Positions 3,201 to 45,032 of a DNA stretch of 64,000 nt are shown piece after piece; the first letter of the stretch is position 1; every line of letters starts with the position of its first letter. This stretch comes from Eikenella corrodens (GTDB lineage: Bacteria; Pseudomonadota; Gammaproteobacteria; Burkholderiales; Neisseriaceae). Made by a program: the position numbers and the translations under genes. Location of the stretch: contig NZ_LT906482.1 of assembly GCF_900187105.1 (NCBI RefSeq), forward strand, positions 434,001 to 498,000. The letters are read 5' to 3'. The notes below the pieces were generated by a model. The model saw only the letters and a program-made list of their open reading frames with translations, was not told where the DNA came from and made no database searches.

Positions 3201-5984
3201 ATGACCGACTATGCCAAAACCGTAAACCTCTACGAATCCCCCTTCCCCATGCGCGGCAATCTGGCCAAGCGCGAGCCGGCGTGGGTGAAGCAGTGGCAGG
3301 ACGAAAAACGTTATCAGAAGCTGCGCAAAATTGCCGCCGGCCGCCCCAAATTCATCCTGCACGACGGCCCGCCCTATGCCAACGGCGACATCCACATCGG
3401 TCATGCGGTCAATAAAATCCTGAAAGACATTATCATCCGCAGCAAAACGCTGGCGGGCTTCGACGCGCCCTATGTGCCGGGCTGGGACTGCCACGGCCTG
3501 CCGATTGAAGTGATGGTGGAAAAACTGCACGGCAAGGAAATGCCGCCCAGCAAGTTCCGCGAGCTCTGCCGCCAATATGCTGGCGAGCAGATTCTGCGTC
3601 AGAAAAAAGACTTTATCCGCTTGGGCGTGATTGGCGATTGGGAAGACCCCTATCTGACCATGGACTACCAAACCGAAGCCGACACGGTGCGTACGCTGGG
3701 CGAGATTTATAAAGCAGGCTACCTGTATCGCGGCGCCAAGCCCGTGCAGTTCTGCTTGGACTGCGGCTCGTCGCTGGCCGAGGCCGAAGTGGAATACAAA
3801 GACAAAGTATCGCCCGCGATTGATGTGGCGTATCGCTTTAAAGACACCGCCGCGCTGGCCAAAGCTTTCAGGCTACCTGAAATTTCCGGCGAAGCCTTTG
3901 CCGTGATTTGGACCACCACCCCGTGGACCCTGCCCGCCAGCCAAGCCATTTCTGCCGGCGCAGACATCGTGTATCAACTCATCGACACCCCGCGCGGCAA
4001 ACTGGTGCTGGCCAAAGATTTGGCCGAAGCCGCACTGGAGCGCCACGGCTTTTCAGGTAGCCCCGTTCTCGCCGAATGCACCGGCGCGGATTTGGAAAAC
4101 CTGCAAGCCGAACATCCCTTTATCGAACGCGATATCCCCGTTTTAAACGGCGACCACGTCACCACCGAAGCCGGTACCGGCCTCGTGCACACCGCCCCCG
4201 CGCATGGTTTGGAAGACTATTTCGTCTGCAACAAATACGGCATCGAGCTCATCAACCCTGTGAATGCGCAAGGCCGCTATGCCGCCGACACCCCGCGCTT
4301 GGCAGGCATGACCGTGTGGGAAGCCAACCAGCCGATTATCGACTGGCTGCAAGAAAACAACCGCCTGCTCGCCCACAGCAAAATCGAACACAGCTACGCC
4401 CACTGCTGGCGGCACAAAACCCCGCTGATTTACCGTGCCACCGGCCAATGGTTTATCGGCATGGACAAAGCCGGCACAGACGGCAAAACCCTGCGCGACA
4501 AAGCCCTCAAAGCCGTGGACGACACCGAATTCTTCCCCGCCTGGGGACGCGCGCGGCTGGAAGCCATGATTGAAGGCCGCCCCGATTGGGTGGTGAGCCG
4601 CCAGCGTTTCTGGGGCACGCCGATGACCTTCTTCGCCCACAAAGAAACCGGCGAGCTGCACCCCGATTCCGCCGCACTGTTGGAAAAAGTCGCCCTGCTC
4701 ATCGAGAAAAAAGGCATCAACGCCTGGTTTGAGCTGGATAAAGCCGAGCTGCTGTCGCCCGAAGACTGCGAACAATACAACAAACTGCCCGACACCATGG
4801 ACGTGTGGTTCGATTCAGGCAGCACCCACTTCTCCGTGCTGAAACAACGCCCCGAGCTCGCCTGGCCGGCCGATTTGTATTTGGAAGGCAGCGACCAGCA
4901 CCGCGGCTGGTTCCAATCCTCCATGCTCACCGGCTGCGCCACTCTCGGCCGCGCGCCCTACAAACAGCTTCTGACACACGGCTTCGTGGTCGACCAGAAC
5001 GGGCGCAAAATGTCCAAATCCATCGGCAACGTGGTTGCCCCGCAGGAGGTGTATAACGAATTTGGCGCCGACATCCTGCGCCTGTGGGCGGCCGCCACCG
5101 ACTACAGCGGCGAATTGGCGATTTCCAAAGAAATCCTCAAACGCGTAACCGAAAGCTACCGCCGCATCCGCAACACACTGAGCTTCCTGTTTGCCAACCT
5201 CAAAGACTTTAACCCGATTGAAGACGCCGTGCCGCAGGCCGACATGGTGGAAATCGACCGCTACGCCCTCGTGCTGGCGCGCCAGTTGCAGGAAAAAGTT
5301 TCAGGTAGCCACTACCCGCGCTACGCCTTCCACTTCGCCGTGCAGGACATCGTACAGTTCTGCTCCGAAGACCTCGGCGCGTTCTATCTGGATATTCTGA
5401 AAGACCGCCTCTACACCACCAAAAAAGACGGCCACGCCCGCCGCAGCGCGCAAACCGCGCTCTACCACATCACCCGCAGCCTTGTACTCCTGATGTCGCC
5501 CATCCTCTGCTTCACCGCCGAAGAAGCATGGGACATCATCGGCGGCGGCGAAGAAGACAGCGTGCTTTATCACACCATGCACGACTTCCCGCCCATCCCA
5601 GCCGCCGGCGAAGCCGCGCTTGTGGAAAAATGGACACACATCCGCGAAGCCCGCGCTGCCGTTACCGCCGCCATCGAGCCGCTGCGTGCCGACAAAACCG
5701 TTGGTTCCTCATTGCAGGCCGAAGTCGCCCTCACCGCGCCCGAACCGCAATACGGCTACCTGAAAGCGCTCGGCAGCGAACTGCGCTTCGCCATGCTCGT
5801 TTCCAAAATCGAGCTGCAAAAAGGCGATGCGCTCACCGCCGAAGTCCACCCCAGCACCGAGGCCAAATGCGAACGCTGCTGGCACTATGTGGACAGCGTA
5901 GGCAGCGTTGCCGCCCACCCCACACTGTGCGCCCGCTGCGCAGAGAATGTGGACGGCAAAGGTGAAGAGAGGGATTACGCCTAA
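3201..5984 (+). CDS. ileS: Isoleucyl-tRNA synthetase
   Basis: A cytoplasmic class I aminoacyl-tRNA synthetase that charges tRNA-Ile. The HIGH motif is in [14 protein letters not shown] (about residues 53-66), and the KMSKS loop is in [10 protein letters not shown] (about 597-606). The CP1 editing domain lies between them. The C-terminal zinc-binding region has CERCWHY and a second C..C pair, as in bacterial IleS. At 927 aa it is the usual length. At least four DUS copies lie in frame and encode RLPE, SGS or GYLK, at sites outside the catalytic motifs. It stands alone between two terminators. Confidence 0.98.
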
Positions 5985-7029: not shown

Positions 7030-7105
7030 GGGTCGTTAGCTCAGTTGGTAGAGCAGCGGACTCTTAATCCGTTGGTCGAGCGTTCGAGCCGCTCACGACC
7101 CACCA
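7030..7105 (+). tRNA. tRNA-Lys (anticodon CTT)
   Basis: GGGTCGT at 7030 pairs with ACGACCC ending at 7101. The D arm (GCTCAGTTGGTAGAGC), the anticodon stem GCGGA/TCCGT around loop CTCTTAA, and the T arm with GTTCGAG are all present, and CCA is encoded at 7103-7105. The loop gives anticodon CTT, lysine. The 3' part is the insertion site of the element that follows. The element restores the last 48 bp, so the tRNA stays complete. Confidence 0.95.
7058..7105 (+). repeat. Left attachment repeat inside tRNA-Lys
   Basis: These 48 bp, from the anticodon stem to CCA, recur at 11485-11532 with a single mismatch (CCGTTGG here, CCGTAGG there). This is the usual attL/attR pattern of tyrosine integrases that use a tRNA 3' end. 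Confidence 0.9.
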
Positions 7106-7134
7106 GAATAATCAAATCTAATCAGCAATTTAGA

Positions 7135-8193
7135 CTAGATTATTTTACCCTCCAAGGTTTGCGCGTTTGAGACTTTGACAAAACTTTGGAGTAAACCGAT
7201 TCCGGGGGCAATACCGGAATCAATCAATCGGGCGTGTTGTGATAAGTGTTCCGGTGCGAGGTGGGCATACCTCTGCACCATTTCGACACTTTCCCAACCG
7301 CCCATTTCTTTTAGGGCTGCTAGGGGTGTCCCCTGCTGAACGAGCCAGCTTGCCCATGTGTGCCGCAGGTCGTGCCAGCGAAAATCCGTTATCCCCGCTT
7401 TCTCCAACGCCTCACGCCACACACGGCTGCTGATGGATTTAACCCGTGCGCCTTTGCTATGCGTAAACACATAATCGCTGACGCGCGGCCTGTCCATCAA
7501 TACCTGCATGGCGGTGTGGTTGAGCGGTACGCCTATCGCTTTCCCGGCTTTGGCTTGGTCGGGATATATCCAGGCCACCTGCCGCCGTAGGTCTATCTGC
7601 TCCCATTTGAGATTGAGCACGTTGGCCTGTCTCAACCCGGTGGCGAGTGAGAAGATAACCAAATGCTGCATATACGGCAGGCTGTCTAGGGCATTGACCA
7701 GCCGTTGTGCTTCTTCTGGATACAGCCACCTGATGCGTTTCTTGGGCTCTTTGTGGAGTTTGAGCTTGGGGGCTTTGTCCAGCCAGTCCCATTCATTCAC
7801 GCATTTGTTCAGGATGGCGCGTATCAGGGCGAAGTATCTGTTCTTTGTGCTGCTGGAACAGTTCTTCTGATTCACGACTTGATGGATAAAATCGCGGGTC
7901 AGGTCGCTAAGCAGTACGCCGCGCAATTCTGGCAATAGGCGGATTTTGTCTTTGTCTCCGTCTAAGCTTTTCTTGTCTTGGTTTTCCTGCAACCAGCGGA
8001 CACATGCTTCATCCCACAGGTGCTGCGGCTTCTCCCCTAGGTTCTCATCACGCCAAAGCTCGTGCTTCAGTTTATCGTGCAGCTCTTGCGCTGCCCGTTT
8101 GTCCCTCGTGCCAGTAGTGCGTCTAAGTCTTTTGCCGCCTGCTGAGCATATGGATATTTGCCATATCCCGTAGTCGTTGAGATAGATTGACAT
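7135..8193 (-). CDS. int: Tyrosine recombinase (phage integrase)
   Basis: A site-specific recombinase of 352 aa. The N-terminal part fits the arm- and core-binding domains. The C-terminal catalytic part has the first Arg in TGLRQANVLNLKW, the H..R box in HDLRHTWASWLVQQG, and the active-site Tyr in MVQRYAHL. Trp replaces the second His (GGW), a known variation. The gene ends 30 bp from tRNA-Lys, pointing toward its own attachment site, which is the usual arrangement. Its last codons include a candidate arm site (7172-7188). It overlaps the excisionase-like gene upstream. Confidence 0.93.
   Translation of the reverse strand: MSIYLNDYGIWQISICSAGGKRLRRTTGTRDKRAAQELHDKLKHELWRDENLGEKPQHLWDEACVRWLQENQDKKSLDGDKDKIRLLPELRGVLLSDLTRDFIHQVVNQKNCSSSTKNRYFALIRAILNKCVNEWDWLDKAPKLKLHKEPKKRIRWLYPEEAQRLVNALDSLPYMQHLVIFSLATGLRQANVLNLKWEQIDLRRQVAWIYPDQAKAGKAIGVPLNHTAMQVLMDRPRVSDYVFTHSKGARVKSISSRVWREALEKAGITDFRWHDLRHTWASWLVQQGTPLAALKEMGGWESVEMVQRYAHLAPEHLSQHARLIDSGIAPGIGLLQSFVKVSNAQTLEGKII
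7172..7188 (+). promoter_or_regulatory. Candidate integrase arm site, left
   Basis: ACTTTGACAAAACTTTG lies 66 bp inside the left repeat and within the 3' end of int. It matches 16 of 17 bases at 11382-11398 in the same orientation near the other end. Arm-type binding is inferred only from position and repetition. Confidence 0.4.
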
Positions 8194-8396
8194 TTTTCTT
8201 TACTCCTTCTGCCAATCACCGCTTGCTCGCGTTCATTTTGCTTCGCGGCGATGTAGTTTTCAAGTGCGGATTCGGTAATGACCCATGCCCTGCCCGCTTT
8301 GAATGCCATGATTTCCCCGGCCTTGCACATCTGCCGGATGGAGACGGGGTGGCATTTCAAGATGTCGGCCGCCTCGTGGATGTTGTAGGTTTGCAT
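8067..8396 (-). CDS. Helix-turn-helix protein, excisionase-like
   Basis: The first 55 residues (IHEAADILKCHPVSIRQMCK, then a wing and AWVITESALENY) match the MerR/excisionase-type winged helix used by phage Xis and directionality factors. The rest (to 109 aa) overlaps the start of int by 127 bp in another frame and has no recognisable motif, so the functional part is probably the N-terminus. Such proteins bend att DNA and bias the integrase toward excision. The location directly before int supports that role. Confidence 0.7.
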   Translation of the reverse strand: MQTYNIHEAADILKCHPVSIRQMCKAGEIMAFKAGRAWVITESALENYIAAKQNEREQAVIGRRSKEKCQSISTTTGYGKYPYAQQAAKDLDALLARGTNGQRKSCTIN

Positions 8397-8409
8397 GATG
8401 TTCCCCTGC

Positions 8410-8769
8410 TTAAATAATAATCTTGATGATGGACTGCTCGCCGTCCACTTCTTCCAGCCCGTCTAATTCCTGAAGCCCTTGCATGGCTACCTCGTATAGG
8501 ATCTGGCTAAGGTTCTCACGGGTTACGCCTTCGCTCGTTATCCGTGCTTCGCGGATTTCGTACTCCGGCTTGTCGTGTATCTTCAGCCAAATCTCGAAGC
8601 GGTATTTGCGCGGCTTGTCGAAGATGCGCTTGCGTTTCACGGGGTCGGCGAAGTCGCCGAACATCTCGGCGGTCTCCTGGAATTCGCGGTAGGTATCTGC
8701 ACCCACCAGCGGGAAGGTGCAGTAGCCGCGATAGGGTTTAGACGGTTTCTTTTTCCTGCTACGGCTCAC
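8410..8769 (-). CDS. Hypothetical phage-type protein, 119 aa
   Basis: I do not recognise this. The N-terminus is very basic (SRSRKKKPSKPYRG) and the C-terminus is acidic, ending in IIKIII. It resembles small accessory proteins of prophages without a diagnostic motif. It lies 13 bp upstream of the excisionase-like gene on the same strand and downstream of a rho-independent terminator, so it starts the int transcription unit. Confidence 0.6.
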   Translation of the reverse strand: MSRSRKKKPSKPYRGYCTFPLVGADTYREFQETAEMFGDFADPVKRKRIFDKPRKYRFEIWLKIHDKPEYEIREARITSEGVTRENLSQILYEVAMQGLQELDGLEEVDGEQSIIKIII

Positions 8770-8780
8770 GGCTTAATCTC

Positions 8781-8805
8781 CAAAATCAAAACCGCCCGAA
8801 GGCGG
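8781..8805 (-). terminator. Rho-independent terminator
   Basis: Read on the minus strand, CCGCCTTCGGGCGG is followed by TTTTGATTTT: a 5-bp GC stem, a tetraloop and a T tract. It ends the fragment gene at 8812 before the 119-aa gene. Confidence 0.85.
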
Positions 8806-8811
8806 CCTAGA

Positions 8812-9060
8812 TTACTCTCCAACTGCTTCATAAGTTTGCTCAAAAATATCCGGTTTGCACGGATATAGTTCCCCATGGATTCCGCGAATAATCCAATCTC
8901 CCTGACTGGCTGTCATAACTCCTTCCAGCGTATTGATTTTGGCAAACAACTCTCCTTCTGCAGTTTGCTCAATCATAATCTGCTCAATAAAACCGGGGAT
9001 ATGAGTACGGATATTTTTGTGGGTTAACTGCCATGCTTGGATGACAACTGGTTTTTTGAC
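8812..9060 (-). pseudogene. 5'-truncated phage protein (PGDYI-like)
   Basis: The minus strand reads VKKPVVIQAWQLTHKN at the 5' side and ASQGDWIIRGIHGELYPCKP near the 3' side, ending at a stop at 8812-8814. Small phage proteins with a KKPVVIxA start and a GDWIIRG.GE.YPCKPDIF core are common in prophages. The usual ATG before KKPVVI is missing: the codon is GTC at 9058-9060, and no in-frame start lies just upstream. The 5' end therefore seems to have been lost at a junction with the divergent gene at 9041. Confidence 0.55.
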
Positions 9061-9439
9061 GCGCGGGCGGTACTCACATTGCGAGCTTGCCGTCAGACTG
9101 CCTGAAACGGCAGATGGGCAGGAATATGAGTGCTATTCCGCCAGCATCCGCGACGGCGGGGTGCGCTGGAAACGTATGCCGCTGCCTGCGGATAAGTGGG
9201 ATTTAATCCCACTGGATGATGCCATGCTGCACGCCCACACCGTCGGGCTGTACCTCCGCACGGCAGGCCAAGGCTACGACCTGCCCGGCGCGTTCGGGGT
9301 GGTATTCGGGCTGCCTGAAAACCGCCGCCGTTGGTTTTGCAGTGAGTGGGTGGGCGCGGCTTTGGGGTTGTCCGAGAGCTGGCGTTTTTCGCCGAATGAT
9401 TTGGCGGTAATTGCGAACATGGGAAGGGAGGAGAAATGA
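9041..9439 (+). CDS. Permuted papain-fold (YiiX/NlpC-like) phage protein
   Basis: About 132 aa. RGRYSHCEL near the N-terminus provides a His, and RWFCSEWVGAAL near the C-terminus provides a Cys. His before Cys is the order of circularly permuted NlpC/P60 (YiiX/LRAT-like) hydrolases. SIRDGGVRWK is a segment common in phage members of this group. The first beta-strand usually found before RGRYSH is missing, so the 5' end appears truncated. ATG at 9041 or TTG at 9017 may now serve as start. The gene overlaps the next by ATGA, suggesting coupling into the lysis module. Function is inferred. Confidence 0.6.
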   Translation: MTTGFLTRGRYSHCELAVRLPETADGQEYECYSASIRDGGVRWKRMPLPADKWDLIPLDDAMLHAHTVGLYLRTAGQGYDLPGAFGVVFGLPENRRRWFCSEWVGAALGLSESWRFSPNDLAVIANMGREEK

Positions 9440-9819
9440 CACCGTTGGAAACGTCTAACGTTCCCGGCCATATGCTGAACATGGGCATGATTGGCATTTC
9501 CGGCACGATAGCCGGCATGCCGTTAGAAGCCCTCGTGTTGGGCGCGGTGGCTGGGGCATTGCATCACGGCTTGAAGGAACCGGGCAGCCGTAAGAATGGG
9601 ATGCTGGTCATCATCACTAGTATGCTGCTGGCCGGGTCTTTGTCGCCGATGATTATGGCCTACCTGGCCTTGAGCTTGGGGCTGGAACAGGAAGTATTCA
9701 AGGCCGCCGTGCCGATGCTGATTGGCTTGGGTTGGTCTTGGGCTACCCCGCTCCTGAATGACGGCCTGCGCCGTTTGTGGGCGGGCTGGATTGATAAATG
9801 GGGAGGTAGAAGGAAATGA
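9436..9819 (+). CDS. Holin-like membrane protein, 127 aa
   Basis: Three hydrophobic segments (about residues 15-45, 52-75 and 82-104) are followed by a basic C-terminal tail ending KWGGRRK, which suits a class I holin or related phage membrane protein. It starts at an ATGA overlap with the previous gene and ends at an ATGA overlap with the next. Its position before an endolysin and spanins supports a role in timing lysis. The family assignment rests on topology and context. Confidence 0.65.
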   Translation: MTPLETSNVPGHMLNMGMIGISGTIAGMPLEALVLGAVAGALHHGLKEPGSRKNGMLVIITSMLLAGSLSPMIMAYLALSLGLEQEVFKAAVPMLIGLGWSWATPLLNDGLRRLWAGWIDKWGGRRK

Positions 9820-10139
9820 ACTTGGCAATGATTACCCAATGCTTATTGATGATAAACGTAGCGGCGATGGCGGCGATATTCGTGTATTCCGCCTGTTCGC
9901 TTTCGGTGCGGCAATGGACAGCCAAGCAACCTGACTACTGGATACATAGCCTACTAGTGGGCGGCTCGGTGGCGGTTATCGGCCATTCGCTCGCCAGCGG
10001 GCAGGTGCATCATTGGACAGAAATCATGTTCAACGTAGCGGCAGCGGCCTATTTTATGCTGCGCTCGCACCGTATCCATTTGCTGGCCGGGATATTGCAG
10101 CGCAAAGGAAAATGGAAGCGGTTATCAAAAAATCTTTGA
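9816..10139 (+). CDS. Small phage membrane protein, 107 aa
   Basis: Three likely membrane helices occur at about residues 5-27, 43-62 and 68-90, with a basic C-terminus (LQRKGKWKRLSKNL). The ATG overlaps the stop of the holin-like gene. It could be a second holin or an antiholin. Lysis modules often carry two such proteins. I see no family-specific motif. Confidence 0.6.
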   Translation: MNLAMITQCLLMINVAAMAAIFVYSACSLSVRQWTAKQPDYWIHSLLVGGSVAVIGHSLASGQVHHWTEIMFNVAAAAYFMLRSHRIHLLAGILQRKGKWKRLSKNL

Positions 10140-10151
10140 CAACTCTTAATT

Positions 10152-10167
10152 CCCCCGAATTCGGGGG
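10152..10167. other. GC palindrome before the endolysin gene
   Basis: CCCCCGAATTCGGGGG is a perfect 16-bp palindrome followed by GTTTAGG, then a DUS at 10172-10183 and the endolysin ribosome-binding site. It could attenuate transcription or translation between the holin and endolysin genes. The T tract is too short for a confident terminator. Confidence 0.4.
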
Positions 10168-10201
10168 GTTTAGGCTACCTGAAAGAGAGAAAGGAAACGG
10201 A

Positions 10202-10711
10202 ATGACACCGGAAACCAAAATCACAGAACACTTTACCTACCGCGAGCTGACCAACAGCGCCACCGGCAGGCGGCTCGGGCTGGAGAACAAGCCGAACGAA
10301 CAAGAGCTGGGGAACATCAAAAAGACTGCCGAACGCTTGGAGAAAATCCGTGCTTGGCTGGGCAAGAAGTACGGGCGCGAAGTGAGCATCCACGTTTTAT
10401 CCTGCTTCCGCAGCGCAGCGGTAAACGGCGCGGTGGGCGGCTCGAAAACTTCGGCGCACCGCTTCGGCTCGGCGGCGGATATTGATGCGGCCGGTATCTC
10501 TAATCTGCAATTGGCGCGCGATATTATCCAAATGCGCGATGACGGGGAAATCACGTTTGACCAGCTGATTTACGAATTCCCGGAACGCGGCGAAAGCGGC
10601 TGGGTGCATTTCGGCTGCCGCCACAATTCGGCGGAACGCAATCAGATCCTGACCGCCACCAAGCGCGGCAACGGCGGCAAAACGCAGTATCTGTTTGGGC
10701 TGCATCCGTAG
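10202..10711 (+). CDS. Endolysin, peptidase M15 family
   Basis: A 169-aa zinc D-Ala-D-Ala/L-Ala-D-Glu-type peptidase expected to cleave peptidoglycan cross-links. SCFRSAAVNGAVGG precedes the metal motif SAHRFGSAADID, and WVHFG supplies the third zinc ligand. The N-terminus MTPETKITEHFTYRELTNS is typical of phage M15 endolysins. The ATG at 10202 follows a strong ribosome-binding site (AAAGGAAACGGA). A longer in-frame extension to 10013 would read through the previous gene and the palindrome, so I rejected it. No signal peptide is seen, so a holin is needed for access. Confidence 0.88.
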   Translation: MTPETKITEHFTYRELTNSATGRRLGLENKPNEQELGNIKKTAERLEKIRAWLGKKYGREVSIHVLSCFRSAAVNGAVGGSKTSAHRFGSAADIDAAGISNLQLARDIIQMRDDGEITFDQLIYEFPERGESGWVHFGCRHNSAERNQILTATKRGNGGKTQYLFGLHP

Positions 10712-10720
10712 GGGCTAAAC

Positions 10721-10867
10721 ATGAACACCCCTAAAGAATGGCTGCGGCGCATGATTGCCGAACAGGAAGCAGCCCGGCAGGCTGCCCTTGTTTCTGGCAA
10801 TAAAACAGCGCTGGCAACAGCGGAACGCGAACTAGCGAACTACCGAAGAATGCTCGGTAGTTCGTAG
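10721..10867 (+). CDS. Small phage protein, 48 aa
   Basis: The sequence begins MNTPKEWLRRMIAEQEAARQ and ends NYRRMLGSS, a charged amphipathic peptide. It starts 9 bp after the endolysin stop and ends 11 bp before the spanin gene. The pattern resembles the short gpW-like head-tail joining proteins often encoded near lysis genes, but that is only an impression of sequence style. An assembly gene left behind here would be informative about the ancestor. Confidence 0.5.
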   Translation: MNTPKEWLRRMIAEQEAARQAALVSGNKTALATAERELANYRRMLGSS

Positions 10868-10878
10868 GAGTAATTGAG

Positions 10879-11220
10879 ATGGATTGGATAATCAAGCATT
10901 GGCGATGGTTGGCGATGGCGGCTGCGCTGGCTGCGGTAGTCGGTGGTGAATATTGGTACGGCAGACAGCGCTATCAGGCGGGCTACGATGCGGCCACGGC
11001 GGTCATCACGGCCAAGATGATAGAGCAGCATCAGCAGCAGCAAAAAGCCGCCCGTGCGGCCAGCGTGGAATATCAACAAGGGAAGTCCGAACGGGACGAG
11101 AAAGTGAGAGTAAGACGTGAAGTGGTACAGCAAATTATCAATCGGCCCGTGTTTACTGGCGATTGCGTTGATGCAAGCGGGGTGTCAGTCCTCAACGCCG
11201 CCATTGCCGAACGCCGTTGA
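10879..11220 (+). CDS. i-spanin (Rz-like)
   Basis: The protein has an N-terminal membrane anchor (residues about 5-27, WLAMAAALAAVVGGEYWYG). A Gln/Arg/Glu-rich coiled coil over about 40-85 follows, giving the N-in, C-out topology of Rz. A short C-terminal part contains FTGDCVDASGVSVLN. Inner-membrane spanins join an outer-membrane lipoprotein across the periplasm to fuse the membranes in the last step of lysis. The overlap with a lipoprotein gene in the +2 frame at its 3' end (11117) is the hallmark of the Rz/Rz1 pair. Confidence 0.8.
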   Translation: MDWIIKHWRWLAMAAALAAVVGGEYWYGRQRYQAGYDAATAVITAKMIEQHQQQQKAARAASVEYQQGKSERDEKVRVRREVVQQIINRPVFTGDCVDASGVSVLNAAIAERR

Positions 11221-11374
11221 GCCGCCTGCCGACTTGGCTACACCCTGCCCAAGGCTACCTGAATTATCCGGCACTACGGGCAAGGTCATGCTGCCGTGGG
11301 CGCTGGAGGTGGTGCATCTGTATAACGACTGCGCGGCACGGCATGATGGGTTGATTAAGGCATGGCCAAGGTAG
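11117..11374 (+). CDS. o-spanin lipoprotein (Rz1-like)
   Basis: A GTG start at 11117 lies inside the Rz-like gene. The product has a signal peptide ending in a lipobox, LMQAGC (Cys23), then a Pro-rich segment (STPPLPNAVEPPADLATPCP), as in Rz1 lipoproteins. At 85 aa it is a typical size. An exact DUS at 11252-11263 encodes RLPE within it, so the host uptake signal has entered a phage gene. Confidence 0.78.
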   Translation: MKWYSKLSIGPCLLAIALMQAGCQSSTPPLPNAVEPPADLATPCPRLPELSGTTGKVMLPWALEVVHLYNDCAARHDGLIKAWPR

Positions 11375-11381
11375 CCAAAGC

Positions 11382-11398
11382 ACTTTGACAAAAGTTTG
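11382..11398 (+). promoter_or_regulatory. Candidate integrase arm site, right
   Basis: ACTTTGACAAAAGTTTG is the counterpart of 7172-7188 and lies 86 bp inside the right repeat. Further TTTGACA and TTTGG motifs follow in this AT-rich stretch, which contains no gene. Confidence 0.4.
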
Positions 11399-11484
11399 AC
11401 AGCGTTTGGCTGTTTTAGCCTTTGTTTGGCATAGTTTGAGCAAGCGGAGATTTAGCAAAATCAAATAGTTAATATAAAAATATA

Positions 11485-11532
11485 GGACTCTTAATCCGTA
11501 GGTCGAGCGTTCGAGCCGCTCACGACCCACCA
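11485..11532 (+). repeat. Right attachment repeat
   Basis: This duplicates the 3' part of tRNA-Lys including CCA, with one mismatch from 7058-7105. No tRNA 5' half precedes it, so it is not a second tRNA gene. Confidence 0.9.
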
Positions 11533-11535
11533 AAA

Positions 11536-11578
11536 TAAAAACCAGACTAAGCAATCACTTAGGCTGGTTTTTATTTTT
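11536..11578 (+). terminator. Displaced terminator of tRNA-Lys
   Basis: ACCAGACTAAG and CTTAGGCTGGT form a long stem followed by TTTTATTTTT. It directly follows the right repeat and not the tRNA. That is what is expected if it was the tRNA terminator before the element inserted. Confidence 0.8.
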
Positions 11579-11627
11579 CGCATCACACTGCCAATTAAGT
11601 TAGTCTGGCAAATTCTTGCCCCATCCC

Positions 11628-41380: not shown

Positions 41381-41668
41381 TTAAGCCAGCAGTTTCATCA
41401 GCAGCAGCCACGGCAGCATAATCCCGCCGATGCATACCATCAGCCACAAAATCAAACTGTCTGCCATCTGCCGCAGCATGGCGAAATAGCCCCATGAATA
41501 CAGGCCCCAAATCACAGCGGAAATAGCTGCCGCAATCAGGGGGCCGCCAAACAGGCCGAATAAAAAAGTTACAACGGCAAAAGCCAGCGCCCATTGCCAG
41601 GCATAGGAGTCCTCAGCGAAATCCTGCATTTTGGCAAAGGCCAGCAAAATCAACATGTGTAGCAGCAT
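41381..41668 (-). CDS. Small membrane protein, 95 aa
   Basis: Three hydrophobic segments (about residues 2-12 with 25-45, 48-62 and 70-93), no charged catalytic motif, family unknown. It lies between mraY and murD on the same strand and is bracketed by DUS copies. It could be a minor divisome or lipid II-linked protein only by location, which is weak evidence. Confidence 0.6.
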   Translation of the reverse strand: MLLHMLILLAFAKMQDFAEDSYAWQWALAFAVVTFLFGLFGGPLIAAAISAVIWGLYSWGYFAMLRQMADSLILWLMVCIGGIMLPWLLLMKLLA

Positions 41669-41732
41669 AACCTAGGTTCTTTAAATTGGGTTGCAATGGG
41701 TTTTGGCTTCATAGCAGCCTACCGTATCTGCT

Positions 41733-41773
41733 TTCAGGTAGCCTCTCTTTAACAGATTAGGCTACCTGAAAAC
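41733..41773. terminator. Inverted DUS pair after mraY
   Basis: CTTTCAGGTAGCCTC at 41731 and AGGCTACCTGAAAACC at 41758 form a hairpin just past the mraY stop. Confidence 0.65.
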
Positions 41774-41776
41774 CGT

Positions 41777-42859
41777 TTAACGAATTTTCAATGTACTCAA
41801 GCCCACCAGCACCAGCACGATGGTGATGATCCAAAAGCGCACCACCACCTGCGTTTCCTTCCAGCCCTTCTGCTCGAAATGGTGGTGAATCGGCGCCATC
41901 AGGAAGATGCGTTTTTTGGTTTTCTTATACCAGCCCACCTGCAGCATCACCGACAAAGCTTCCACCACAAACAGCCCGCCCATAATCACCAACACAAATT
42001 CCTGCCGCACAATTACCGCCACCGTGCCCAGCGCCGCGCCCAGCGCCAATGCGCCCACGTCGCCCATAAACACCTGCGCCGGTGCCGCGTTGAACCACAA
42101 AAAGCCCAAGCACGCGCCGCACATGGCCGCGCAGAACACCATCACCTCGTTCGCCCCTGGCACGAAGGGCAACTGCAGATAGCGTGCAAACTGCCAGTGC
42201 CCGGTGGCATAGGCAAACACCGCCATCCCCCCGGCCACCAACACCACCGGGAAAGCCGCCAAGCCGTCCAAGCCGTCGGTCAGGTTTACCGCATTGGACG
42301 TGCCGACAATGGTGAAATACGACAGCACCACAAAGCCCACCACGCCCAAAGGCAGCGCCACCTGCTTAAAAAACGGCACGATTAAAATATTGTTTGCCGA
42401 ATTGCTCGCCACATAAAACAGCAGCAGGCCGGCCGCCAGCGCCACGCTGCTCTGCCACACCATCTTAAATTTGGCCGACACGCCGTGCGGATCTTTATAC
42501 ACTACCTTGCGCCAGTCGTCGTAGAAGCCCAGCGCGCCCGTGCCCAGCAGCACGCCGAGCAGAATCCAGATATACGGGTGCGATACATTGCCCCACAACA
42601 GCGTGGACACCGTAATCGACACCAAAATCAGCACCCCGCCCATGGTGGGCGTGCCTGCCTTGGCCAAATGGGTTTTCGGCCCGTCGCTGCGGATGGCCTG
42701 GCCGGCTTTAAGTTCGGTGAGCTTGCGGATAGTCCACGGCCCCAGCATCAGGCTGAACGCCAAAGCCGTAAGCGCCGCCATCACTGCGCGGAAAGTGGTG
42801 TATTGGAAAATGTTCAGCGCCGAAATCCAGTTGCTGAGTTTGGCCAACCATAAAAGCAT
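41777..42859 (-). CDS. mraY: Phospho-N-acetylmuramoyl-pentapeptide transferase
   Basis: The inner-membrane enzyme making lipid I from UDP-MurNAc-pentapeptide and undecaprenyl phosphate. It has ten membrane helices. GFYDDWRK holds the Asp pair, [10 protein letters not shown] the next Asp box, and [14 protein letters not shown] the His motif. Length 360 aa. It is the first gene of the second half of the dcw cluster. A Correia-like repeat and a plus-strand gene separate it from murF. Confidence 0.97.
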
Positions 42860-42881
42860 AAAACTTCCTTAAATCATTTCT

Positions 42882-42982
42882 CGTAAGTTCAATTTAAACC
42901 GATATTGCATTGTCTCTCCGTACTGTACTACTTTGCATTATCTGCGGCTCGCTGCCTTGTTCTGATTTAAATTGAATTCGCT
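42882..42982 (-). repeat. Correia-like element 3, upstream of mraY
   Basis: The ends are an inverted repeat around AATTTAAA (AGTTCAATTTAAAC and its counterpart TTTAAATTGAATTC). The inside on the minus strand reads CAAGGCAGCGAGCCGCAGA, then AGTAGTACAGTACGG. The order and spacing match a Correia element in which the TATAGTG tips have eroded. It lies 23 bp before the mraY start, where such elements could affect transcription. Confidence 0.65.
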
Positions 42983-43142
42983 TAATTAACCTAGGCAGCC
43001 GGAAATAGAAAAGGCTACCTGAAACATAATTATCTGTATTGCACCACTGTAAAATGGGCAAATGTGGCATTATAAACTAAGCCGCTACCCAAGAGAGGCT
43101 ACCTGAAAACCGAAATTCCCACTGCCATGCGAGGCACAAACT

Positions 43143-43910
43143 ATGCAAACCATGCACTCCCACAGCGCACGCTGCCGCATCCGATTTATGGATCTACCAG
43201 CCCATGCGGGCAGAAACAGCACCCCTTGCTTATTTATCCACGGCCTAGGCTGCGCTGCCAGCTACGAGTACCCCCGCATCGCTGCCAGCCCGGCCTTGGC
43301 AGGCCGCCGCACTATCCTGCTTGACTTGGCAGGTCACGGCTACAGCGAACGCCCACAGGATTTCTCCTATTCCACCAGCGCGCAAGCCGCAATCGTATCC
43401 GAACTGGCCAACCATCTTAACTTGCCGCACTTCTATCTCTATGGGCACAGCATGGGTGGCAGCATCGCTATTGAAGCCGCCGAACAGCTCGGCAGCCGCG
43501 TGCGCGGACTCATGGTAAGCGAATGCAACCTGATTACTGGCGGCGGTATATTCAGCCGCAACATTACCGCACAGGATGAAGCGTATTTCATCCACAATGG
43601 CTATGCCGAATTGCTAAATAACGAACTCTCGCCGTGGGCAGGCAGCCTACAAAGTGTTGCCCCGTGGGCATTGTGGCGTAGTGCATATCATTTAGTGAAC
43701 GGTATATCGCCCGATTGGCTGTACCGCCTCTCCTCCCTGCCCCAACGCAAAATTTATTTAGTTGGAGATCGTTCCCTGCCCAACACAGACTACGACCTTA
43801 TCCTTCAATACGGTATTCCCTGCGCCGTGATTGCCGATGCCGGGCACTCGATGTCTTGGGAAAATCCGGAAGGCTTGGCTACCGCTTTGGCAGAATTTAT
43901 GTGCGCTTGA
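43143..43910 (+). CDS. Alpha/beta hydrolase
   Basis: A 255-aa soluble hydrolase. FIHGLGCAASYEYPR is the oxyanion-hole region, LDLAGHGYSERP follows, and GHSMGGSIAIEAA is the nucleophile elbow with Ser. A C-terminal AGHSMSWENP carries the catalytic His. Substrate unknown. It is on the opposite strand to everything around it and splits the dcw cluster into two halves. The start at 43143 is the first ATG in frame; a later start at RFMDLP is possible. Confidence 0.85.
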   Translation: MQTMHSHSARCRIRFMDLPAHAGRNSTPCLFIHGLGCAASYEYPRIAASPALAGRRTILLDLAGHGYSERPQDFSYSTSAQAAIVSELANHLNLPHFYLYGHSMGGSIAIEAAEQLGSRVRGLMVSECNLITGGGIFSRNITAQDEAYFIHNGYAELLNNELSPWAGSLQSVAPWALWRSAYHLVNGISPDWLYRLSSLPQRKIYLVGDRSLPNTDYDLILQYGIPCAVIADAGHSMSWENPEGLATALAEFMCA

Positions 43911-44003
43911 GCTTGGGTTACCAACATGGCTGTTTGTGTTTCAGCCCACTTTGAACCAGTAAGGCTACCTGAAAGTAAACGAAGCCGAATTTGTCCAAAC
44001 CGC

Positions 44004-45032
44004 TCAAACCTCTTCCCACCACAATTCAGTTTCCGTATCCACATCAAACACCTGCCCGATTAGCGGCGTGAGCACCGGCAGGCCGCGCTCGATGGCCAGC
44101 GGGATGCTGCGGCGCACGGGTTCGTCCCAATCGTGCATGGCCAGGCTGAAGGCGCCCCAGTGAATCGGCATCATGCGGCGCGCGCCCACGTCGATGGCGG
44201 CCTGCACGGTTTGCCCGGGGAACATGTGGTTGTCTGGCCAGCGGCGGTCGTATTGGCCGTTTTCCATAAAGGCCAGGTCGAAGCCGCCGAAGTGCCGGCC
44301 GATGTCGGCGAAGTGGCTGCCGTAGGACGAATCGCCGCTGAAATAAAACCGCTGCCCGCCGCCTTCGACGGCCCAGCCCGCCCACAGCATACGGTTGTGG
44401 TCGGCCAGGTTGCGCGAGCTGTCGTGGCGGGCGGGAGTGGCGGTGAATGTTACGCCGCCGACGGTATGGCTCTGATACCAATCCGCCGCCGAAATGTTTT
44501 CCGCCTTCACGCCCCAGCGGCGCAGCAGCACTTCCATGCCCAGCGGCACCAGGAAATGCACCCCGCTGTCTGCCACGCTGCGTACGAAGGATTCCTCCAA
44601 GTGGTCGTAGTGGTTGTGGCTGTAGAGGATGATGTCGAGCGGCGGCAGTTCGTGCGGCGCGGCGGGCGGCGGCTGGAAGCGGCGAAACATTTTGTTGTTC
44701 GGTGCGGCGCTCATGCCGAACACGGGGTCGGTGATGATGTTCAACCCGGCCACACGCATCAGCAGGGTGGAATGGCCGAACCAGACAAACCGTGCCTTTT
44801 GTTCATTTTCAGGTAGCCCTTCCTGCCGCATGAAGGCAGCAAAATCAGGCTTCTCAAACGGCAGCGGCTGCGCGGGAAAGCGGCCTTGCCAACTGAGCAT
44901 TTTGAACGCTCCGCCAAAATCCAGCGGCTGCAATCGGCGTTTGGGCTCCGGGTTGAAAAAACGGCGGCGGATCGGGTCGTAGTGGTTGCTGGCCGGATAG
45001 AGCGGATAACCGCCGTGCGGCCTACGCTTCAT
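44004..45032 (-). CDS. Metallo-beta-lactamase-fold hydrolase (NAPE-PLD-like)
   Basis: A 342-aa zinc hydrolase. YSHNHYDHLEESF is the HxHxDH metal motif, FSGDSSYGSHF contains a metal Asp, and MPIHWGAF supplies a later His. The N-terminus (PLYPASNHYDPIRRRFFNPEP) resembles NAPE-PLD/RomA-like enzymes. Natural substrate unknown. The start overlaps the murF stop by 11 bp, so it is co-translated with a cell-wall gene. One DUS in frame encodes LPENEQ. Confidence 0.82.
   Translation of the reverse strand: MKRRPHGGYPLYPASNHYDPIRRRFFNPEPKRRLQPLDFGGAFKMLSWQGRFPAQPLPFEKPDFAAFMRQEGLPENEQKARFVWFGHSTLLMRVAGLNIITDPVFGMSAAPNNKMFRRFQPPPAAPHELPPLDIILYSHNHYDHLEESFVRSVADSGVHFLVPLGMEVLLRRWGVKAENISAADWYQSHTVGGVTFTATPARHDSSRNLADHNRMLWAGWAVEGGGQRFYFSGDSSYGSHFADIGRHFGGFDLAFMENGQYDRRWPDNHMFPGQTVQAAIDVGARRMMPIHWGAFSLAMHDWDEPVRRSIPLAIERGLPVLTPLIGQVFDVDTETELWWEEV

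What the first reader, a model, noticed from the sequence alone, without database searches (positions are those of the whole stretch)
7058..11532. A tRNA-Lys-integrated element that carries integration and lysis genes but nothing else of a phage
The sequence shows 48-bp att-like repeats, an intact integrase, an HTH excisionase-like gene and a lysis series (permuted papain-fold protein, holin-like protein, second membrane protein, M15 endolysin, Rz/Rz1 spanins) in 4.4 kb, without packaging, head, tail, repressor or replication genes. Most remnants keep random pieces. Here a working lysis set survives. It could be a decayed prophage, a phage satellite that hijacks a helper, or a retained lysis cassette used to release DNA or protein. 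Release of DNA would be notable in a naturally competent genus.
Basis: partly seen in the sequence, partly recalled or inferred. Interest (0 to 1): 0.75.

Follow-up and report, generated by a model that had tools for sequence, protein, structure and literature searches.

The report
Prophage remnant from one large deletion
A dormant bacterial virus of about 44-48 kb, inserted at a tRNA gene of what looks like an Eikenella bacterium, lost its whole middle in a single deletion, leaving only its two ends (integration genes and lysis genes); such defective prophages are ordinary.

Summary
In detail: a 4.4-kb element lies between 54-bp direct repeats (52/54 identical) at tRNA-Lys(CTT), with an intact integrase and excisionase, then holin-like protein, a second membrane protein, M15 endolysin and Rz/Rz1. 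Two corrections. The 'permuted papain-fold' gene is not intact: its first ~34 codons, start codon and ribosome-binding site are gone. A second cut gene (PGDYG family) lies head-to-head against it. Both end at one breakpoint, window ~9048-9054.

Public 43-49 kb phage contigs carry the same genes at their two ends, with terminase, portal, tape-measure, repressor and replication genes between. Homology to the intact papain gene rises from 3-6/15 to 14-15/15 matches at the breakpoint.

So this is a tRNA-integrated temperate prophage that lost about 38-40 kb in one internal deletion. 'Only integration and lysis genes' simply means the two arms of the provirus. The unit was found in none of 82 other Neisseriaceae genomes, and no terminase of the two families searched occurs in the genome. 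No promoter-like site precedes the lysis genes. Domestication of the lysis genes is possible (E. coli DLP12 is a precedent) but unsupported. Ordinary.

The parts
7030..7105 (+). tRNA-Lys(CTT), integration target; its 3' part is the left att copy
   Evidence: ARAGORN
7058..7111 (+). attL-like direct repeat (54 nt)
   Evidence: 52/54 identical to 11485-11538
7135..8193 (-). tyrosine integrase, 352 aa
   Evidence: Pfam PF00589 1.9e-34; 81-85% aa identity to integrases at one end of phage contigs G083-G086
8067..8396 (-). excisionase-like HTH protein, 109 aa
   Evidence: HTH_17 1.7e-11, PHROG excisionase 2.8e-15; 72-82% aa identity in G083-G086
8410..8769 (-). 119-aa left-arm phage gene, function unknown
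   Evidence: 93-95% aa identity to a gene next to int/xis in phage contigs G090 and G091
8812..9056 (-). PGDYG-family early gene, 5' end (start codon and first few residues) lost at the breakpoint
   Evidence: PHROG 419 1.7e-23; relatives begin M-x-YR-KKPVVIEA; here the frame runs on past KKPVVI into the papain gene with no start codon
9048..9054 (.). deletion breakpoint in a run of T
   Evidence: identity to the intact papain gene of G087 rises from 3-6/15 to 14-15/15 around here
9050..9439 (+). papain-fold (PHROG 1128) gene fragment, first ~34 codons missing
   Evidence: intact homologues start 34 residues earlier in G087; no ribosome-binding site at the TTG at 9017
9436..9819 (+). holin-like membrane protein, 127 aa
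   Evidence: 100% aa identity to G087, 99% G091, 95% G090
9816..10139 (+). second membrane protein, 107 aa
   Evidence: 94% aa identity to G087/G091, 86% to G090 over residues 1-99
10202..10711 (+). M15 peptidase endolysin, 169 aa
   Evidence: Peptidase_M15_3 1.8e-13; 97% aa identity to G090; expected metal-site residues H86, D94, H136 present (their role is from general knowledge of M15 peptidases)
10721..10867 (+). small ORF, 48 aa
   Evidence: 42% aa identity to a G091 ORF in the same place
10879..11220 (+). Rz inner-membrane spanin, 113 aa
   Evidence: PHROG Rz-like 1.3e-17; 72-81% aa identity in five phage contigs
11117..11374 (+). Rz1 spanin lipoprotein overlapping Rz, 85 aa
   Evidence: Pfam LysC 9.9e-7, PHROG 456 2.2e-7; lipobox LMQAGC
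11485..11538 (+). attR-like direct repeat (3' part of tRNA-Lys)
   Evidence: followed by the hairpin 11532-11577, probably the original tRNA terminator

Best explanation
This is a defective prophage. A temperate tailed phage of about 44-48 kb integrated by its tyrosine integrase into the 3' end of tRNA-Lys(CTT). A single internal deletion of roughly 38-40 kb then joined a left-arm early gene (PGDYG family) to the papain-fold gene that starts the lysis cluster, cutting both. Shown: the att repeats, the gene content, the two truncated genes meeting at one breakpoint, and 43-49 kb relatives with the same arms at their ends and a full phage in between. Inferred: that the ancestor sat at this site as a full prophage, that the deletion was one event through a short T-run microhomology, and that the lysis genes are now silent because their upstream late promoter and activator were deleted. 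The int/xis pair and the att sites look intact, so the 4.4-kb remainder might still excise, but it cannot make particles.
For: Contig G090 (43,699 bp) has the 119-aa gene at 1254-1662 (93% DNA) and the lysis cluster at 41667-43699 (84-85%), 40 kb apart; G091 (44,776 bp) has them at 4154-4562 and 42708-44776. G085 and G086 (47-48 kb) have int/xis at base 47-1276 (81%) and Rz at the opposite end. Between the arms lie terminase, portal, head protease, tail sheath, tape measure, baseplate, CI-like repressor and replication initiator. Holin is 100% identical to G087, endolysin 97% to G090. The breakpoint is sharp; the papain gene lacks ~34 N-terminal residues present in G087, G090 and G091; the PGDYG gene lacks its start. 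The chromosome has no match to the structural block of G090 beyond ~40-bp stretches at one query site and no phrog_2 or PF06056 terminase. The joint is absent from IMG/VR.
Against: No full prophage at this tRNA-Lys(CTT) was seen in a close relative; only one other genome of the genus is held and it has no matching integrase. No single contig carries close relatives of all the genes; the arms match different mosaic phages (G083-G086 for int/xis, G090/G091 for the 119-aa gene, G087/G090/G091 on the right). The PGDYG gene is not in those contigs. The surviving lysis genes are all open, which does not by itself look like decay.
Confidence: 0.93

Rival explanations
1. Domesticated lysis cassette: after the deletion the host kept holin, endolysin and spanins for its own use (release of DNA or protein, vesicle formation, cell-wall upkeep), as proposed for the lysis genes of the E. 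coli DLP12 prophage.
For: All lysis genes after the truncated papain fragment are open and in order, and holin, second membrane protein, endolysin and Rz have plausible ribosome-binding sites. DLP12 is a published precedent (PMC7918800).
Against: The first gene of the cluster is cut and no sigma-70-like site was found on the + strand from 8700 to 11600. The low dN/dS is seen equally between phages, so it reflects phage selection before the deletion. The window-only codon changes (holin 4 synonymous/0 nonsynonymous, second membrane protein 13/6, papain 12/8, Rz 2/4) cannot be dated to after the deletion. The arrangement was not found in any other genome searched.
Confidence: 0.04
2. Phage satellite: a small autonomous element that integrates, is packaged by a helper phage and uses its own lysis genes.
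For: Intact integrase, excisionase-like gene and att sites.
Against: No packaging, capsid-remodelling, replication or regulatory gene in 4.4 kb. No terminase of the two families searched in the genome. No second copy of the element found. The internal joint is between truncated phage genes, not satellite modules.
Confidence: 0.02
3. Assembly artefact: the middle of a full prophage was lost in assembly, not in the cell.
For: The joint lies in a short T run; one assembly only.
Against: The genome is a single contig estimated 99.99% complete. The joint is not a long repeat that would collapse, and the structural genes sought are nowhere else in the assembly.
Confidence: 0.01

Closest known systems
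41-49 kb IMG/VR phage contigs G084-G087, G090, G091 (e.g. IMGVR_UViG_2838825438_000003, _2690315926_000004, _2894585576_000003)
   Same: Same left-arm genes (int/xis or the 119-aa gene) and the same right-arm lysis genes at about 80-93% DNA identity, at opposite ends of the contig; they carry the eikDUS 12-mer (3-12 copies in the four largest read in full), which suggests Eikenella-type hosts.
   Different: They have the whole middle of a temperate tailed phage; here it is deleted.
E. coli K-12 cryptic prophage DLP12 (integrase overlapping tRNA argU; lysis operon kept)
   Same: Defective prophage at a tRNA gene that keeps a holin/endolysin/Rz/Rz1 lysis cluster (PMC7918800).
   Different: [quoted passage not shown] its lysis operon is shown to be transcribed and to affect vesicles and cell wall, which is untested here.
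Prophage in the other genome of the same genus (G003 contig 36, from about 25.4 kb on)
   Same: M15 endolysin 81% and Rz1 63% identical.
   Different: Different integrase (27% identity), with its tape-measure gene and other phage genes still present.

Membership tests
Defective (cryptic) prophage | Integrase and att repeats at a tRNA gene | tested here: met
Defective (cryptic) prophage | Genes homologous to those of complete temperate phages, in collinear order | tested here: met
   Arms match opposite ends of 43-49 kb contigs
Defective (cryptic) prophage | Loss of essential virion genes by deletion, with a recognisable scar | tested here: met
   Two truncated genes meet at about 9048-9054
Defective (cryptic) prophage | Full-length version at the same site in a related strain | tested here: inconclusive
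   Only one other genome of the genus held; it lacks this integrase and no tRNA was found at the syntenic flank
Phage satellite (PICI, PLE, P4-like) | Own regulation, replication and packaging-interference genes | tested here: not met
   None found by Pfam or PHROGs in the genes of the element
Phage satellite (PICI, PLE, P4-like) | Helper phage in the host or recurrent copies of the unit | tested here: not met
   No phrog_2 or PF06056 terminase in the genome; no second unit in 83 family genomes. Other terminase families were not tested.
Domesticated lysis cassette (DLP12-like) | Lysis operon complete and transcribed | not testable with these tools
   First gene truncated, no + strand promoter-like site found; transcription unknown
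Domesticated lysis cassette (DLP12-like) | Conserved in the lineage under purifying selection after loss of the phage | tested here: inconclusive
   dN/dS low but the same between intact phages; not enough strains

The most novel reading that the evidence does not exclude
After the deletion the bacterium kept the holin-endolysin-spanin genes in use, under a host promoter, to lyse a fraction of cells or shed vesicles, thereby supplying DNA to a naturally competent population.
Probability: 0.03. Interest if true: 0.6.

Novelty: new member of a known kind. Interest (0 to 1): 0.1.

Why it matters
It matters little: it is a clear example of how one internal deletion leaves a deceptively neat 'integration plus lysis' element, because those modules sit at the two ends of an integrated phage. 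It warns against reading such remnants as mini-elements or release cassettes without comparing them with intact relatives.

Tried and rejected
Satellite: no satellite genes, no terminase of the two families tested. Conserved 4-5 kb unit: endolysin and integrase searches over 83 Neisseriaceae genomes found no second genome with the two together; among the fetched loci the only other close pairings are a different integrase beside the lysis genes of a larger prophage in G003 and a 27%-identical integrase in one phage contig, L045. Translocation of the missing phage block elsewhere in the chromosome: only ~40-bp stretches at one query site matched. Joint present in other phages: 0 exact matches in IMG/VR. 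dN/dS as a test of retention: uninformative, since nearly all divergence predates the deletion. Empty-site comparison: not possible, the sister genome has the right flank (68%) but no tRNA-Lys there. No structure was predicted: the family and homologue evidence was enough.

Full report
What is there. tRNA-Lys(CTT) lies at 7030-7105. Its 3' part, 7058-7111, is repeated at 11485-11538 with 2 mismatches in 54. Between the copies, on the minus strand, are a 352-aa tyrosine integrase, a 109-aa excisionase-like protein, a 119-aa unknown and a PGDYG-family gene. On the plus strand are a papain-fold (PHROG 1128) fragment, a 127-aa holin-like protein, a 107-aa membrane protein, a 169-aa M15 endolysin, a 48-aa ORF and overlapping Rz and Rz1.

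The scar. The papain-fold frame has no credible start. Intact homologues in phage contigs begin earlier (34 residues earlier in G087), and the TTG at 9017 has no ribosome-binding site. Compared base by base with G087, identity is 3-6 of 15 up to 9044, 10 of 15 at 9045-9059, and 13-15 of 15 from 9060 to 9149. Read on the other strand, the same place is the start of the PGDYG gene: relatives read M-x-YR-KKPVVIEA, while here the frame runs from KKPVVIQAWQ upstream straight into papain-gene sequence without a start codon. Two genes that point away from each other are thus both cut at their 5' ends at one point, in a short run of T. That is the signature of a deletion joint.

The intact relatives. 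Searches of IMG/VR with the integrase, papain fragment, endolysin and 119-aa protein returned 41-49 kb contigs. Searching the whole contigs with the element showed the 119-aa gene at one end and the lysis cluster at the other end of G090 (1.3 and 41.7-43.7 kb) and G091 (4.2 and 42.7-44.8 kb), and int/xis and Rz at opposite ends of G085 and G086. The middle encodes terminase, portal, head protease, tail sheath, tape measure, baseplate, repressor, antirepressor and replication initiator. Protein identities reach 100% for holin and 97% for endolysin. From the spacing in G090 and G091 the deletion would be about 38-40 kb (inference). The four contigs read in full carry 3-12 copies of AGGCTACCTGAA, the Eikenella uptake sequence (PMC3630211, PMC12061091), against none of AT-DUS, so their hosts are probably Eikenella-like. 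The window itself has 81 copies, which supports the same for this genome.

How it works now. With int, xis and both att copies apparently intact, excision may be possible, but nothing remains to replicate, package or build a particle. No sigma-70-like site was found on the + strand between 8700 and 11600. In the intact phages the lysis genes follow the tail genes on the same strand, so the upstream promoter was very likely deleted and the cluster is probably silent (inference).

Rivals. A satellite would need regulatory or packaging-interference genes and a helper. None was found in the element, and the genome has no phrog_2 or PF06056 terminase, although positive controls were detected. A domesticated lysis cassette has a good precedent in DLP12 (PMC7918800), but here there is no evidence of expression or recurrence. 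Low dN/dS is shared with the intact phages and so does not bear on the time after the deletion. In 83 Neisseriaceae genomes no second integrase-lysis unit was found. The only close neighbour, in the other genome of the genus, is a larger prophage with a different integrase.

Integration site. Relatives of this integrase in other Neisseriaceae genomes lie beside tRNA-Lys genes, mostly TTT and once CTT, so the site is typical for the integrase family.

Verdict. A defective prophage produced by one internal deletion; ordinary. What remains unshown is a full prophage at this very site in a sister strain and the expression state of the surviving lysis genes.

Noticed in passing
window 7172-7188 and 11382-11398: A 17-nt direct repeat ACTTTGACAAAA[C/G]TTTG lies inside each att end; a similar motif (CACTTTGGACAAATTTTGGAC) lies at the integrase end of G085/G086. 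It may be the integrase arm-type binding site.
   Followed up: partly
window 11532-11577: A 20-bp near-perfect hairpin directly after the right att copy looks like the original tRNA-Lys terminator, now 4.4 kb away from the tRNA.
   Followed up: no
L417 and L437-L438 (G003 contig 36): The other genome of the genus has a larger prophage whose integrase lies directly beside the same kind of lysis cluster, so int and lysis genes are neighbours there without any deletion.
   Followed up: partly
L139 (BK070131.1 39907-40324): A prophage deposited as from Helicobacter pametensis has a stretch 85.6% identical to the Rz/Rz1 region over 418 bp, which is odd for that host and may reflect a mislabelled genome.
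   Followed up: no
G000:C1 1939632-1941399, 931567-931860 and others: Seven further Phage_integrase-family matches in the genome; two at 1.94 Mb lie close together. Not examined.
   Followed up: no
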